Assembly: GCF_000317895.1 (NCBI RefSeq)
Contig: NC_019567.1
Coordinates: 1,302,001 to 1,366,000, forward strand
Direction: 5' to 3'
From: Bdellovibrio bacteriovorus str. Tiberius
GTDB taxonomy: Bacteria > Bdellovibrionota > Bdellovibrionia > Bdellovibrionales > Bdellovibrionaceae
DNA length: 64,000 nucleotides
Under the pieces are notes generated by a model. The model worked only from the letters and a program-made list of their open reading frames with translations. It had not been told where the DNA came from and ran no database searches. Positions 498 to 24,855 of this stretch are shown in pieces. The translations under genes and the position numbers were made by a program. Numbering within the stretch: position 1 is the stretch's first letter; every line of letters starts with the position of its first letter.

Positions 498-500
498 GTC

Positions 501-623
501 GGTGGGTGAAAAAGGCCCATCTGACTGCGTTGTCGGGCCTTCTCCTTCTCTTCGACGTGCTTGGAGCACGCCTCCGTTTCGGAGAAAACCCTCCGCCTTG
601 CATCTGAACCTTTTTGACCCACC
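501..623 (+). repeat. Dispersed intergenic repeat, family A, copy 1
   Basis: This roughly 123-bp element lies four bases after the endonuclease stop codon. Its ends form an inverted repeat: GGTGGGTGAAAAAGG on the left against CCTTTTTGACCCACC on the right, 14 of 15 positions complementary. A second copy with the same order of blocks occurs at 24710-24830. Shared blocks include GGCCCATCTGACTGCG, TTCGACGTGC, GAGCACGCCT and TCCGCCTTGCATCTGAACC. Size, terminal inverted repeat and position right after a stop codon resemble REP/MITE-type elements. Confidence 0.8.
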
Positions 624-922
624 TTGAACTGGTGGGTTTTGTTTTTTTGGGGAGGGCGGCGTCGCTGCGCTGGCCTTGGGGAACTTTCTTGGATTGAAGT
701 TGCGGTTATAAACATAAAATAGTTTTTGGAGTTTTGGGTTTTGCTTAAGTACTTGGCATAAAATGGGGAAAATTGTAGGCCCCGGGCATAATTCTTAAAA
801 AATCTGTAATAAGTCTCTTGCAATCGTGTTTTTGTTATGCTGCAATCATTTTTACGGGAGGGGTGATACCAAGGAAGGTACTCGGGGAGCATGATGTTCT
901 CACCTCTATTTTAATTAGATTA
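624..922. other. Intergenic stretch without recognisable gene
   Basis: Between repeat copy A1 and the terminator at 925-955 there is a stretch with GC-rich patches at its left end and AT-rich sequence to the right. Small open frames exist on both strands but have no ribosome binding site, no family resemblance and low-complexity composition. I see no gene, RNA or clear promoter here. Confidence 0.5.
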
Positions 923-10220: not shown

Positions 10221-10711
10221 AGTTGAATCCTTTTCAGTTCGATGAATTCAAAAACGCCGTCGGAATTCACATGAAAACCAACGTGCTGGCAGGGACTCCA
10301 ATGGGAAAAATCAGCATCCGAAGAAAGATCCTTGTCAGCCGGTGCCACACCCATGGCTTCAACCACCCAGTCATAGTGGGAGCACATGAAAATGGTCGCC
10401 TCAGATTTGGTGGCGGCATTTTCCAGAAGCTTGCTGATGCGGTTGCGAAAATCACTCAGGGTTTCGTCGCCTTTTTGTTCTAGCAGTGCGTCCTGAGTGA
10501 TCAGGGGCAGGCCCAGATGTTGGGATAGGGGACGGAAGGTGCTGTGGGTGCGCTTTTTAGGGGAAACCCAAAGCTCCGTAGGACGCGGTAATTCCTCTTT
10601 AAGCACCTTGTCGAGCAGTTTGGAGGCTTGAGCATGTCCCTCGGCCGTGAGATCGGGGTCTCCGGAAAAATCCATGGCTTTCTGGGCGTGTCTAAAGACG
10701 TAGATCTTCAT
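10217..10711 (-). CDS. SixA-like histidine phosphatase
   Basis: The 164-residue protein starts MKIYVFRHAQKAMD, where RHA is the histidine phosphatase (phosphoglycerate mutase-like) motif in the shortened SixA form. The second catalytic His lies in MCSHYDWVVEAMG. SixA removes phosphate from phosphohistidine on HPt domains or PTS proteins; here the target is unknown. It is the first gene of a two-gene unit with the FAH-family gene, and is divergent from hslO with about 77 bases between the start codons, a space that should hold both promoters. Confidence 0.87.
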   Translation of the reverse strand: MKIYVFRHAQKAMDFSGDPDLTAEGHAQASKLLDKVLKEELPRPTELWVSPKKRTHSTFRPLSQHLGLPLITQDALLEQKGDETLSDFRNRISKLLENAATKSEATIFMCSHYDWVVEAMGVAPADKDLSSDADFSHWSPCQHVGFHVNSDGVFEFIELKRIQL

Positions 10712-10788
10712 TGCGGCGGGCTCTCTTCTGCTTGAAATTAAGGTCGTGCTTTGTTAGGGTCATTTTCCATAAAGTCCGGGAGTTTGTC

Positions 10789-11688
10789 ATGAGTAAAGAA
10801 CGAGTTCATCGCTTCGTATCCAAAGATCTGACTGTGCGTATTGCCGCAGTGAATGCGACTGAAGTCGTTCGACACATGCAGGGTCTGCAAAATACCTATC
10901 CATTGGCCACGGTGGCTGTGGGTCGCAGCATGGTGGGAGCTCTTTTGATGGCGGCTCAGCTTAAGGACGATCAAATGGTCGGCTTGCTTTTCCGCGGCAA
11001 CGGCCCGTTGGGAAGCATCTATGCCGAAGCGTCCTACAACGGACACGTGCGTGGTTACACCGCAAACCCGCAATATCAACCAGCTAACTATGACAATGGC
11101 TTGTCTTTGAAAGACGCCATCGGTATTGGGCTTTTGAGTGTGGCCCGACATCAGCCATTCCAAAAACAACCATTCCAGGGAACGGTTGAACTGGTCAGCG
11201 GAGAAATCGGGCAGGACATCGCCCACTATCTGCACCAGTCCCATCAAATCCGTTCTTTGGTTTCTTTGGGTGTATATCTGGACACTTACGGCAAAGTCCG
11301 TTCTGCTGGCGGCGTACTAATTGAAGTCATGCCCGGCGTGGACGAAGCCGTCGTGGAAAGAATCCAGAAAAACTACGAAGACAAAAAACCAAACATTTCC
11401 CAAATGCTTTTGGATGGCGCGACTGCCGAACAACTGCTGGCCCCGTTCATGGATGGCATCCCGTTTGAAGAAATCGAACACAAACCCGAAGTTGAATACT
11501 TCTGCCCATGCACCAAAGACCGCGTGATGCGCGCTTTGGAACTTTTGACGGTGGAAGACTTTGAAGACATGATCAAAAAAGCCGAACCAGTTCACGTGAC
11601 TTGTCAGGTTTGTGGTCGTCCTTACGAGGTTTCCATTCCAGAAGTGCAGGAGCTTAAAGACAAGCTTCACAAGGAATCCCTGCACTAG
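10789..11688 (+). CDS. hslO: Hsp33 redox-regulated chaperone
   Basis: Hsp33 is a cytoplasmic holdase switched on by oxidation and unfolding. The 299-residue protein has the usual N-terminal substrate domain (GNGPLGSIYAEA, NPQY, SGEIGQDIAHYL) and the C-terminal zinc switch, CPC in FCPCTKDRV and CQVC in CQVCGRPYEV, about thirty residues apart. I chose the ATG at 10789, which gives MSKERVHRFVSKD, the normal family N-terminus. An in-frame ATG at 10711 would add 26 residues with no family counterpart and overlaps the divergent gene. No strong ribosome site precedes 10789 (GTCCGGGAG is the nearest purine block). Confidence 0.96.
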   Translation: MSKERVHRFVSKDLTVRIAAVNATEVVRHMQGLQNTYPLATVAVGRSMVGALLMAAQLKDDQMVGLLFRGNGPLGSIYAEASYNGHVRGYTANPQYQPANYDNGLSLKDAIGIGLLSVARHQPFQKQPFQGTVELVSGEIGQDIAHYLHQSHQIRSLVSLGVYLDTYGKVRSAGGVLIEVMPGVDEAVVERIQKNYEDKKPNISQMLLDGATAEQLLAPFMDGIPFEEIEHKPEVEYFCPCTKDRVMRALELLTVEDFEDMIKKAEPVHVTCQVCGRPYEVSIPEVQELKDKLHKESLH

Positions 11689-11712
11689 TTTTTTTCGGGT
11701 GTCGCGGGGTTT

Positions 11713-11854
11713 GCCGGGCAGTAAGGCCTTGCCCGGCGCTACGGGCGGCACGGCATCCTGCCTCGTCGCTTCCACCTACGCCTTCGGCTACGGCGGAGGG
11801 CCATCCAGGCCCCGCGAAGGCCGCCCTCCGGCCAGGCAATTCCTTACTGCCCGA
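11713..11854. repeat. GC-rich palindromic repeat, family B, copy 1
   Basis: This roughly 142-bp element has terminal inverted repeats, GGGCAGTAAGG on the left and CCTTACTGCCC on the right. It contains two blocks of 28 bases, at 11746-11773 and 11795-11822, that occur in reverse complement at 12207-12234 and 12168-12195. It follows the hslO stop by about 25 bases. Family B is unrelated in sequence to family A. Confidence 0.75.
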
Positions 11855-12131
11855 CAAATCGGCTTCGATCAATTAGGGCAGGGGAACTTGGGAAGCTTCT
11901 CTTCAAGATCCACGCTTCAAAAACAAAACTTCAAAAGAAGAATTTCCACAAACTGACAATCGACGTCTGCGCCGCGAAGAAAAATTCAGTACAAACATAT
12001 TCAATGACTTCTTCCGCGCGAATGCGCATCTGCAAATAGAAAAGAATCTTAGAAATTAACGACGAACCCTTTCGAGGTCGCGCAGCGACTCTTCGAATTC
12101 TTTTTCTTAAATGTTCCTTGGTAGTTACGAA
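11855..12131. other. Spacer between two inverted family B repeats
   Basis: This 277-base stretch between the two inverted repeat copies has no supported gene. On the minus strand a short open frame near 12060-12110 reads EFEESLRDLERVRR and then stops; it could be decayed coding sequence, but it is too short to call. Longer open frames here run into the GC-rich repeats and are compositional artefacts. Confidence 0.4.
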
Positions 12132-12270
12132 ATTGGGAACAAGGCCGGGGAAGCCCGGCCGGAGTTCGGCCTTCGCGGGGCCTGGATGGCCCTCCCACCG
12201 CAGGTGGGAAGCGACGAGGCAGGATGCCGTGCCGAACGGAGCGCCGGGATTCACCGGCCTTGCTCCCAAT
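12132..12270. repeat. GC-rich palindromic repeat, family B, copy 2 (inverted)
   Basis: The ends ATTGGGAACAAGGCCGG (12132-12148) and CCGGCCTTGCTCCCAAT (12254-12270) are inverted repeats with one mismatch in 17. The core is the reverse complement of copy 1, with two exact 28-base blocks flanking a short variable hairpin, CCCACCGCAGGTGGG. The terminal repeats differ from those of copy 1, so the element looks modular: a conserved core with exchangeable ends. Confidence 0.75.
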
Positions 12271-12310: not shown

Positions 12311-14506
12311 TTAGAAGAGCGAATCTCCCCAGTCGATGAGCGTGGAGTTGATCCACCCAATCTTTTCCTGGGCCGTGATTCTTCGGCCTTTACTGATATA
12401 GTCCAGGGCTTCTTTGCGCATTTCTAGTGCGGTGGGGCCATGCAAAATCAACACTCCGCTTTCGGTGTCGTGAATGAAGCTTCGGCGGTTCATGTTGACG
12501 CTGCTGATGAAGCTTAGCTTTTTGTCGATCACCAGGATTTTCGAGTGCATGATCGAATTTGGCTGAGTCCACTCGAAGATTTCCACGTTTTTCAAATGGC
12601 GGTTGATGCCTTGTTTGTTCACGTCTTCGGCGATCTTTGGTGTGCCATCGCCCGCCAGATGAATACGGGTGATGATCTTTACTTTTACTTTGCGTTGAAC
12701 GGCGCGGTCCAACGCTGCGCTGATTGCCACGGACGGGCGGAAGTAGGGCGTGGTCAACAGCAGTTCAGACTGGGCTGAATCAATCATGTCGATATAGAAT
12801 TTTTCCAGCTGATAGCCGTCAAAGTAAGGCATCGAAGTGATGTGTCGAACCAGAGGTGCGGCATAAGGAAGTGAGCGCAGGCGCGTGACCTGATCTGCGG
12901 TGGCTTCTTTAGGCACGTTGATGTTTGTGGATCGGTGGCGCTGGGTTTCTGGATCACGCATCCAGAAGGCCAGCATCTGGGCCATCACGGATTTTACGAA
13001 TGCATAACCGCGGATTTCGATTTCGAAATCGTCATAGTAAACATAAGCCTCTTCGCCGTCGCCGTAGTTCTTCAGGTATTTGTAGGCCTTATAGAAAGGC
13101 GTGTCGCTGAAGATATAGGAATCACGAATGTTGCGACCACCGGTGATCAGGAAGCTGTCTTTGGTGTTGGTGCTGGAATGACCAATGATCAGTTTCGTGT
13201 GATTCACACGGTGGAACTTGTCAAACCAGCCGCCGTTGTTTTCATCAGACAGTACATATTTATAATACTGCACTTTGATGTTCGGAAGGCCCTGTTGCAA
13301 GCGATCCAGAATCGCTTTGTCTTTTTTAGTCATGGTCACTTCAGGAACCAGAATGCGAATTTGTGTTCCTTGCTGCCCGTGATAGCGTAGAGCGCTGGAC
13401 AGCACCATGCCATAGAAATCCGCCGAGAAATTCAAAGAAGAAACCCAGATGATGTCAAACTTCGGAGCTTTCGAAAAATCCAGCTCTGCCAACGGGTTCT
13501 TGTTGTTGAAGTCCTTGCGGCTCAGCGGGGAGCCGGTCAGTGCCAGGATCTTTTGATTGATCGACACATAGGGATCACGCAAGTTCACAAGTTTATCGAA
13601 AGTCTGCGGGCAGGTTGTATAGTTGAAATCCTGCTTCCAGAAGAACGCGGTCGCGTCGTTACCGAAGTTTCCGTCGGGACGAGCACAGATGTCGATCTGA
13701 TTTGTCAGTTTGATCCACTCTTTAGAGGCGCGCCCCAGATCCACCAGTTGTACACCGTTGGTCCACGTTTTTGATTTTTCTGGATCGTAGAAGGACAGTC
13801 GGCAATAGTTTACTCGGGGAGTGAACTTCACCCGTACCCTCTGGCCGTTTTCCTGATTGTAGTACCAGTTGAATTCATAGACGCGGCTTTGCTGTTCACT
13901 TGAAAAGATCCAGCCTCCCGGGTGAATGATGTCACCATCGCATTCAAGGCGTGCCTTCAGAAACTTCTTTCGTGTGTTTTTTTCTTCGCGGAAAGGAGAG
14001 TCCGGTACGGGAATATCATTTTCAAAACGCAAGATATAGGTGCCATAAAACTGATGTTCGATGGGAAATGATCCTTGATGTGATGATCCGAACTTAAAAT
14101 CATCCATCGAACGGATTCTTAGAACCTCTTCTTTTTCAAACAGACGCGGGCGGAAGGTGGCTTCAAACCACGGACCCAGGCCGGACCATTCACGCAGATA
14201 AAGTTTTGAGGACAGCTGGCTGATTTCGGCGTTGCGTTCACTGAGCAAGGCTTCTACGCGGGGCCAGTTTTCATTGGCGTGATCGAGGTCTTTTTGGAAT
14301 TTCGCGTTTTGCTGGCCTTTTTGGAAAAGTTCCTGGTTGTATTTCCAGTCCTTGTTCCAATAACGGGAAAGCTCGACGTCGATTTCCTGAATGCGGTTGG
14401 CGCGTTCATCGTCATACATAACAGAGCTCGGTGCGCGCTGCGGGCCCGTGCATGAAGTCAGTAATGTTATGGCCAGTGCAAGGCCTCCCAAGAGCTTATT
14501 CATCAA
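12311..14506 (-). CDS. Phospholipase D-like lipoprotein (cardiolipin synthase-like)
   Basis: The 731-residue product has a lipoprotein signal peptide, MMNKLLGGLALAITLLTSC, with lipidation near Cys19. The C-terminal half carries two HKD-type motifs of the phospholipase D superfamily. The second, MHSKILVIDKKLSFISSVN, is canonical (H-x-K-x4-D). The first, NHTKLIIGH continuing to KDSFLITGGRN, has the His and Lys but about seven extra residues before the Asp, an unusual spacing. The closest named relatives are ClsC/YmdC-like enzymes that transfer phosphatidyl groups; nuclease or lipase activity is also possible in this superfamily. A membrane-anchored enzyme of this kind could act on self or prey lipids (inference). 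No terminator is obvious downstream, where the family B repeats begin. Confidence 0.88.
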   Translation of the reverse strand: MMNKLLGGLALAITLLTSCTGPQRAPSSVMYDDERANRIQEIDVELSRYWNKDWKYNQELFQKGQQNAKFQKDLDHANENWPRVEALLSERNAEISQLSSKLYLREWSGLGPWFEATFRPRLFEKEEVLRIRSMDDFKFGSSHQGSFPIEHQFYGTYILRFENDIPVPDSPFREEKNTRKKFLKARLECDGDIIHPGGWIFSSEQQSRVYEFNWYYNQENGQRVRVKFTPRVNYCRLSFYDPEKSKTWTNGVQLVDLGRASKEWIKLTNQIDICARPDGNFGNDATAFFWKQDFNYTTCPQTFDKLVNLRDPYVSINQKILALTGSPLSRKDFNNKNPLAELDFSKAPKFDIIWVSSLNFSADFYGMVLSSALRYHGQQGTQIRILVPEVTMTKKDKAILDRLQQGLPNIKVQYYKYVLSDENNGGWFDKFHRVNHTKLIIGHSSTNTKDSFLITGGRNIRDSYIFSDTPFYKAYKYLKNYGDGEEAYVYYDDFEIEIRGYAFVKSVMAQMLAFWMRDPETQRHRSTNINVPKEATADQVTRLRSLPYAAPLVRHITSMPYFDGYQLEKFYIDMIDSAQSELLLTTPYFRPSVAISAALDRAVQRKVKVKIITRIHLAGDGTPKIAEDVNKQGINRHLKNVEIFEWTQPNSIMHSKILVIDKKLSFISSVNMNRRSFIHDTESGVLILHGPTALEMRKEALDYISKGRRITAQEKIGWINSTLIDWGDSLF

Positions 14507-24708: not shown

Positions 24709-24709
24709 C

Positions 24710-24830
24710 GGTCGGTGAAAAAGGCCCATCTGACTGCGTTGTCGGCGGGGCTTCTCGCTTCGACGTGCAGGAGCACGCCTGCGCTGCGAGGACCCACCTC
24801 CGCCTTGCATCTGAACCTTTTTGACCAACC
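24710..24830 (+). repeat. Dispersed intergenic repeat, family A, copy 2
   Basis: The ends GGTCGGTGAAAAAGG and CCTTTTTGACCAACC are inverted repeats. The internal blocks match copy A1 at 501-623 in order and orientation, with differences clustered in the middle, where compensating changes keep a small GTGC-GCAC hairpin. Like copy A1, it begins within a few bases of the stop codon of a plus-strand gene. Confidence 0.8.
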
Positions 24831-24855
24831 GTTAAAATTGCCGTTTTTAAAAACG

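What the first reader, a model, noticed from the sequence alone, without database searches (positions are those of the whole stretch)
11713..12270. Family B repeats: conserved core with different terminal inverted repeats, in inverted pair
Two 28-base blocks are identical (in reverse complement) in the two copies, while the terminal repeats differ (GGGCAGTAAGG against ATTGGGAACAAGGCCGG) and the hairpin between the blocks differs. A modular element with swappable ends is unusual and may reflect repeated insertion or gene conversion. The inverted pair could also form a large cruciform or promote inversion of the spacer.
Basis: seen in the sequence. Interest (0 to 1): 0.55.

Follow-up and report, generated by a model that had tools for sequence, protein, structure and literature searches.

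The report
Palindromes with fixed head, changing stems
The two repeats belong to a widespread family of DNA palindromes in predatory Bdellovibrio bacteria, in which the tip is kept while both arms of the stem change together and stay complementary, which looks more like copying at the level of DNA than like selection on an RNA.

Summary
In detail: both copies share two identical blocks of 28 and 29 bases and have different self-complementary ends. Different ends are the family's rule, not decay. A covariance model of the ~86-nt head matches 23 of 24 genomes of the genus (331 matches, 13 in the window's genome) and few genomes elsewhere. 134 of 135 copies have a self-complementary stem, mostly private to the locus (mispaired controls 25 of 379). 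Between orthologues both arms often change together, though adjacent noncoding DNA often changes as much. Isolated arm mismatches show no G·T excess over A·C (68:81), unlike SRP RNA (40:3). The head is mixed: 7:7 in its 17 well-paired positions, 42:12 over all 23. Copies favour convergent gene ends and avoid divergent regions. All 16 close pairs found have the same inverted arrangement. An IS1-like insertion sequence in four genomes carries the element. Best reading: a mobile REP/MITE-like palindrome whose stem evolves in concert, perhaps by template switching. Mechanism and mode of spread are inferred; spacer inversion has no support.

The parts
11710..11858 (+). copy A of the palindromic element, between the hslO stop codon and the spacer
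   Evidence: head model R1 match 11737-11830, 88.5 bits
12132..12270 (-). copy B, same element in opposite orientation, 3' of the PLD-domain gene
   Evidence: head model R1 match 12160-12243, 91.1 bits
11746..11773 (+). head block 1 of copy A (first small hairpin, loop with TCC), identical to rc of 12207-12234
   Evidence: helix 2
11795..11823 (+). head block 2 of copy A (second small hairpin, loop ATCCA), identical to rc of 12167-12195
   Evidence: helices 3 and 5
12207..12234 (-). head block 1 of copy B
12167..12195 (-). head block 2 of copy B
11774..11794 (+). variable central hairpin of copy A
12196..12206 (-). variable central hairpin of copy B
11710..11737 (+). left (5') stem arm of copy A, pairs with 11831-11858
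   Evidence: (I4)
11831..11858 (+). right (3') stem arm of copy A
   Evidence: (I4)
12243..12270 (-). 5' stem arm of copy B, pairs with 12132-12159
   Evidence: (I3)
12132..12159 (-). 3' stem arm of copy B
   Evidence: (I3)
11859..12131 (.). spacer between the copies; fast diverging, no gene recognised
10711..11688 (+). hslO (Hsp33) gene; translation start uncertain (10711 TTG or 10786 ATG)
   Evidence: PF01430, 1.4e-75
12311..14506 (-). PLD-domain gene whose 3' end faces copy B
   Evidence: PF13091, 4.5e-24

Best explanation
The pair is one member locus of a Bdellovibrio family of short (about 150-200 bp) palindromic DNA elements. SHOWN: each element is a conserved ~86-nt head (two small hairpins, mostly with TCC loops, and a variable hairpin) on a stem whose sequence is mostly private to the locus but nearly self-complementary; between orthologues both stem arms change together while the head changes less; isolated stem mismatches are not G·T-biased; elements sit mostly 3' of genes, best between convergent genes, and avoid divergent regions; one IS1-like insertion sequence lineage carries the element beside its transposase. 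INFERRED: the element is a mobile or formerly mobile DNA palindrome that works as DNA (a hairpin extruded or formed on single strands), like REP/BIME elements; the stem is kept complementary by copying of one arm onto the other during replication (template switching), so it drifts freely in sequence; the head is the part recognised by a protein; 3' positions are those where selection tolerates it. At this locus the whole A-spacer-B block, about 620 bp, entered between the overlapping stop codons of hslO and the PLD gene in the lineage of the window's genome.
For: Family: 23 of 24 genus genomes, 331 matches at E<=0.01 (a lower bound, 150 candidates scored per genome); 13 in the own genome. Private stems: 134 of 135 copies with >=15 matched arm bases, median 51; left arm against right arm of a copy from another genome 25 of 379, from the same genome 262 of 1274. 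Head helices: 456 cells with changes on both sides against 137.5 in shuffles, covariation score 0.479 against 0.156 (100 of 130 loci, alignment fitted to the model). Concerted change: orthologues with recent arms show 5 double pair-keeping and 5 single changes in 313 compared pairs; diverged ones 71 double kept, 21 double broken, 71 single of 547. Clearest locus: G001_117003/G018_121398, next 65 nt 0.90 and 0.91 identical, head 0.82, arms 0.62 and 0.65 (unrelated arms average 0.50), 38 of 45 paired in both. DNA more than RNA: isolated arm mismatches G·T 68, A·C 81, other 206, SRP RNA of nine genomes G·U 40, A·C 3. Position: convergent 54 of 124 regions against 9 of 103 controls, divergent 6 of 124 against 40 of 103. 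Mobility: four G012 copies in a repeat of up to 1.23 kb with an IS1-like transposase, ends AACTGATCC and, at one copy, a 10-bp duplication TTAAAGAATC; also G009, G013, G010. Locus history: in G015 and G020 the hslO and PLD stops overlap at CTAG.
Against: Over all 23 head pairs G·T exceeds A·C, 42 to 12; 35 of the 42 lie in six poorly paired positions that I had left out, chiefly two of them. This allows an RNA role for the head. Adjacent noncoding DNA on the 3' side often differs as much as the arms (next 65 nt 0.40-0.94), so arms are not in general faster than their surroundings. 129 of 136 copies lack the IS terminal repeat, so how solitary units move is unknown, and no clean empty site with target duplication was shown for one. 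Loss of the block in G015 and G020 instead of gain was not excluded. Convergent copies lie with the 5' end nearer the stop of their gene in 55 of 57, a rule a DNA parasite need not show. Loci kept in 6-9 species suggest function or very slow loss. In one search the number of pair types is hardly higher than in shuffles (48 against 45.3; 69 of 500 as high). Template switching was not traced event by event. Only 136 of 331 matches were analysed for context.
Confidence: 0.57

Rival explanations
1. An RNA element of 3' untranslated regions: the hairpin ends or protects transcripts of the gene before it (and, in the inverted pair, of both convergent genes).
For: In 55 of 57 convergent cases the 5' end is nearer the stop codon of the co-oriented gene; co/co copies start a median 60.5 nt from the stop. 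Copies within 85 nt of a co-oriented stop mostly have no T-run before them (4 of 58 have one). Over all 23 head pairs G·T 42, A·C 12. Loci after prpD, after fusA and beside SRP RNA are kept in many species.
Against: No G·U tolerance in the stems (G·T 33 against A·C 46 in copies within 80 nt of a co-oriented stop), unlike SRP RNA. 32 of 136 copies lie in antisense between co-directional genes, against 36 in sense. Of co-oriented copies 86-180 nt from the stop, 29 of 33 already have a run of six or more T before them. The scan found no terminator-like site at copies A or B, though its loop limit of 8 would miss a large head. No Rfam match in the window.
Confidence: 0.26
2. The head is a binding site for a cellular protein on DNA (nucleoid, supercoiling or replication-transcription conflict control at convergent gene ends), kept by selection; mobility is historical only. 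This overlaps with the main reading.
For: Conserved head, enrichment between convergent genes, retention at orthologous loci.
Against: Copy number differs from 0 to 32 among species of the genus, odd for a needed site; no binding protein identified.
Confidence: 0.3
3. The two copies are decayed versions of one repeat with a fixed pair of ends.
For: A and B ends keep some likeness; recent copies in G012 do share arms; in the same-genome control 262 of 1274 mispaired arms still match, so some copies have related stems.
Against: 134 of 135 copies have self-complementary stems; decay would break pairing, not change it on both sides.
Confidence: 0.03

Closest known systems
REP / BIME / REPIN elements with RAYT transposases
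   Same: Short palindromic extragenic repeats, many per genome, often in inverted pairs; confined to some lineages.
   Different: REP stems are the conserved part and are 20-40 bp (PMC3733652, abstract). Here the tip is conserved and the stem mostly private. RAYT genes exist in 18 of 24 genomes, but none of 30 RAYT loci (about 1.5 kb each side) had a head match. One G004 RAYT at 1181412 has a head about 1.8 kb away, outside that range. G012 has 20 heads and no RAYT match.
CGTC-tagged palindromic repeats (PMC3733652)
   Same: Small palindromes without a dedicated transposase; the head contains CGTC and ATCCA.
   Different: Those have one stem with a CGTC tag at one end; CGTC here is inside a multi-hairpin head. 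Bdellovibrio does not occur in the main text of that paper.
MITEs and IS1-like insertion sequences
   Same: One IS lineage with an IS1-like transposase carries the element, with terminal repeats and one clear target duplication.
   Different: 129 of 136 copies lack the IS terminal repeat; no target duplication shown for solitary units; the variable stem is not the IS terminal repeat.
Template-switch hairpins (Monttinen and Loytynoja, PMC8794818; abstract and passages seen)
   Same: Multibase compensatory change and perfect stems from copying one arm onto the other.
   Different: Described for RNA genes; here a repeated DNA family with one head and many stems.

Membership tests
REP/BIME | conserved palindromic stem with tetranucleotide tag (GTAG or CGTC) at one end | tested here: not met
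   stems mostly private to the locus; CGTC lies inside the head; definition from PMC3733652 abstract and passages
REP/BIME | RAYT gene flanked by the repeat | tested here: not met
   0 of 30 fetched RAYT loci has a head match at E<=0.1; loci were given for 30 of 61 RAYT matches
REP/BIME | extragenic, many copies, inverted dimers | tested here: met
   4 of 136 lie inside a called gene, the rest between genes
MITE of an IS | shares terminal inverted repeats with an autonomous IS | tested here: not met
   AACTGATCC (one mismatch allowed) 30-130 nt 5' of the head in 7 of 136 copies: G008 two, G012 four, G013 one
MITE of an IS | target-site duplication | tested here: inconclusive
   clear for one IS copy (G012 1821519); by eye a near match for 1650353 and none for 2010528; not seen for solitary G004 copies (by eye)
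IS1 family (the carrier) | IS1 transposase | tested here: inconclusive
   NCBIfam transpos_IS1 2.1e-11, 44 bits, below the cut-off of 100; Pfam DDE_Tnp_IS1 0.0099, below cut-off
Structured RNA family | match to an Rfam family | tested here: not met
   no match in the window at gathering score
Structured RNA family | G-U pairs tolerated in helices | tested here: inconclusive
   stems not met (68 G·T, 81 A·C); head 7 and 7 in 17 pairs but 42 and 12 in all 23; SRP control 40 and 3
Intrinsic terminator | stem-loop followed by T-run at copies A/B | tested here: not met
   two sites, both in the PLD gene end, number as in shuffles; the scan allows loops of 3-8 only

The most novel reading that the evidence does not exclude
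A class of bacterial DNA element in which the hairpin tip is under sequence selection, while the stem is maintained purely for being complementary as DNA and is rewritten on both arms by a copying process, at some loci faster than the DNA on either side. It would be a natural record of template switching, perhaps with a head-binding enzyme that promotes it.
Probability: 0.3. Interest if true: 0.82.

Novelty: new variant of a known kind. Interest (0 to 1): 0.6.

Why it matters
How long hairpins stay paired while their sequence changes is an old question. Here are hundreds of copies with one head and many stems, some at orthologous places in several species. They give a ready test of selection on pairing against copying between arms, with SRP RNA as an internal RNA control. 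They also mark a mobile or regulatory DNA family in predatory bacteria that my literature searches did not bring up.

Tried and rejected
Rfam scan of the window: nothing. RAYT as mover: no head match beside 30 RAYT loci. Crude longest-ORF gene calls gave many antisense genes and were replaced by a codon-model caller. Arms as copies of other genomic DNA: one 17-base match outside elements among fetched loci, a weak test because only about 4.4-kb surroundings were searched. A second hairpin on the 3' side: 26 of 115 windows score >=14, many of them known partners; 5' side 0 of 56, but those windows are shorter. CsrA-type GGA loops on the reverse strand were considered (recalled motif) and set aside, because some loops are TCG and there is no strand preference between co-directional genes.

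Mended on re-check: arm identities are lowered for some pairs by unequal arm lengths (for example G005_1191856/G023_2598634, 0.74/0.61 with fixed 45-nt arms; G011_3927216/G022_3766638, 0.98/0.98), so fixed-length values and one search are preferred. The head G·T count had left out six of 23 pairs.

Rows dropped: of the listed matches I left out those of G007 and G009 and most of G013 (short contigs) before the context counts; 136 of 331 matches were used. In one search, 1 of 136 was dropped (contig edge); the one of 135 without a stem is G008_86396. In one search, 94 positions unpaired in the first member and 43 gaps were set aside. Orthologous copies, and pairs that reuse a genome, are not independent, so the P values are too small.

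Literature: none of the papers listed was seen to describe this family; the listings were capped. PMC3627812 was seen by passages only: it reports 8 attack-phase sRNAs, and the word repeat does not occur in its main text. PMC3733652 (abstract and passages) and PMC12306157 (start of abstract and a term search) do not name Bdellovibrio in the main text.

Full report
WHAT IS THERE. Window 11710-11858 and 12132-12270 hold two copies of a GC-rich palindrome in opposite orientation. The copies share two identical blocks (11746-11773 and 11795-11823; reverse complements at 12207-12234 and 12167-12195) and differ in the outer arms and in the small hairpin between the blocks. Each folds by itself into the same shape: a long stem, then a head with two small hairpins whose loops hold TCC and a variable hairpin (z -4.1 and -7.5). 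The genes on both sides converge: hslO (Hsp33) and a PLD-domain gene.

WHERE IT COMES FROM. The window lies in a 3,988,594-base genome. By length I recall this as B. bacteriovorus Tiberius, and G005 (3,782,950) as HD100; neither name comes from a call. G015 has the length of the record of B. bacteriovorus strain kdesi. A narrow head pattern scanned over the GTDB contigs gave 6 stretches: 5 Bdellovibrio and 1 Microbacterium (the window's own genome may be left out there, and most head variants would not fit that pattern).

FAMILY. A covariance model of the head (22 sequences) finds matches in 23 of 24 genomes of the genus, 331 in all, from 0 to 32 per genome. In 140 genomes of the order 28 match, of which 23 are of the genus, 4 of the same family and 1 of another family. 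In 240 genomes of the phylum 22 match, one of them outside the family, at 6e-5. Thirteen copies are in the window's genome; nine of them have 21-55 matched arm bases, and the other four are in the set.

THE ENDS. For 135 copies I aligned the left arm, reverse-complemented, with the right arm. 134 have at least 15 matched bases, median 51. Left arms set against right arms of copies from other genomes reach 15 in 25 of 379 cases, and from the same genome in 262 of 1274; the latter shows that some copies in a genome are related in the stem too. Head helices covary: 456 cells changed on both sides against 137.5 in shuffles, but the number of pair types, 48, is near the shuffled 45.3. Outer ends are loosely alike (GCGGGGATTTG..CAAATTTTGCCTTCGA, by eye; its output was cut).

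HOW THE STEMS CHANGE. The 136 copies fall into 85 groups by flanking DNA. Three loci are shared by 9, 8 and 6 genomes: between prpD and a PEP-mutase-family (prpB-like) gene; upstream of the SRP RNA gene (Rfam match in four loci; five more by BLAST); and after fusA. The own genome also has the SRP copy (L200). With fixed 45-nt arms, both arms are below 0.70 identical in 8 of 29 orthologous pairs, where unrelated arms average 0.50 and the heads of those 8 are 0.78-0.92. The clearest is G001_117003/G018_121398: arms 0.62/0.65, next 65 nt 0.90/0.91. In many other pairs the noncoding DNA on the 3' side differs as much as the arms (0.40-0.94), so a faster rate in arms is not general. What is general is pairing: recent pairs show 5 double pair-keeping and 5 single changes of 313; with about 2.4% change per base, independent change would give about 0.2 doubles (my arithmetic). 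Diverged pairs show 71 double kept, 21 double broken and 71 single of 547.

DNA OR RNA. Isolated mismatches in arms are G·T 68, A·C 81, other 206. In copies within 80 nt of a co-oriented stop they are 33 and 46. SRP RNA from nine of these genomes, folded by alignment, gives G·U 40 and A·C 3 of 306 cells (the folding step favours G·U somewhat). So the stem does not look kept as RNA. The head is less clear: in 17 of 23 pairs G·T 7 and A·C 7, but over all 23 pairs 42 and 12, with 30 of the 42 in two poorly paired positions. Pyrimidine-pyrimidine mismatches in arms exceed purine-purine ones (170 against 36); I have no explanation.

POSITION. Of 136 copies, 57 lie between convergent genes, 36 and 32 in sense and antisense between co-directional genes, 8 between divergent genes, and 3 have one neighbour missing; 4 of the 136 lie within a called gene. 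Against intergenic regions of at least 100 bp in the same loci, convergent regions are enriched (54 of 124 against 9 of 103) and divergent ones depleted (6 of 124 against 40 of 103). In convergent regions the 5' end is nearer the co-oriented stop than the 3' end is to the other in 55 of 57. Co-oriented copies fall in two groups: within 85 nt of the stop, mostly without a T-run before them (4 of 58 have one), and 86-180 nt away, mostly after a T-run (29 of 33). All 16 close pairs found (heads within about 640 bp) are plus-then-minus, at about ten independent loci by my count. Second hairpins occur on the 3' side in 26 of 115 windows and on the 5' side in 0 of 56 shorter windows.

MOBILITY. In G012 four copies lie in a repeat of up to 1.23 kb with a 290-aa transposase that is IS1-like below curated cut-offs, inverted ends AACTGATCC and, at one copy, a 10-base duplication. 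Head matches stand beside 10 of 30 transposase loci fetched (several overlap: four G012 copies, two G009, one G013, one G010); 20 have none. The element lies between transposase stop and IS end, in antisense. An AACTGATCC-like end lies 5' of 7 of the 136 copies. RAYT transposases are common (18 of 24 genomes), but 0 of 30 RAYT loci has a head; one G004 RAYT lies about 1.8 kb from a head, outside the searched range.

THIS LOCUS. In G015 and G020 the hslO stop overlaps the stop of the PLD-type gene at CTAG, with no DNA between (translated ends). The window's genome, G005 and G023 have the A-spacer-B block there. Gain of the whole block in that lineage is the simplest reading. The block is bounded by CTAG and TTAG, which may be a duplicated target or just the two needed stop codons.

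VERDICT. It is most likely a mobile DNA palindrome of the REP/MITE kind in a new form. The steps from pattern to mechanism (template switching, head-binding protein, way of spread) are inference.

Noticed in passing
window 500-628 and 24709-24835: A second repeat family (D1/D2); a similar stretch lies downstream of a RAYT gene in L289 (by eye).
   Followed up: no
L267, L268, L274, L275: RAYT genes in Bdellovibrio are flanked by inverted stretches such as GGTGCCTGC or GGTACCTGC and their reverse, a separate repeat family (by eye).
   Followed up: partly
L192 2201-2461, L200, L141, L176: The element lies upstream of the SRP RNA gene in nine genomes (four by Rfam, five by BLAST); six of the eight divergent cases are at this locus.
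   Followed up: partly
L239: A G019 insertion sequence has a long hairpin in the same place but no head match at its tip.
   Followed up: no
L175 (G020 3139009), L089 (G004 809131), L172 (G020 1449253): The inverted likeness of the flanks runs on into the T-run of the upstream gene's terminator (by eye).
   Followed up: no
G012, G009, G013, G010 IS loci: IS1-like transposase relatives in 14 of 24 genomes; the palindrome was found only beside those of four genomes.
   Followed up: partly
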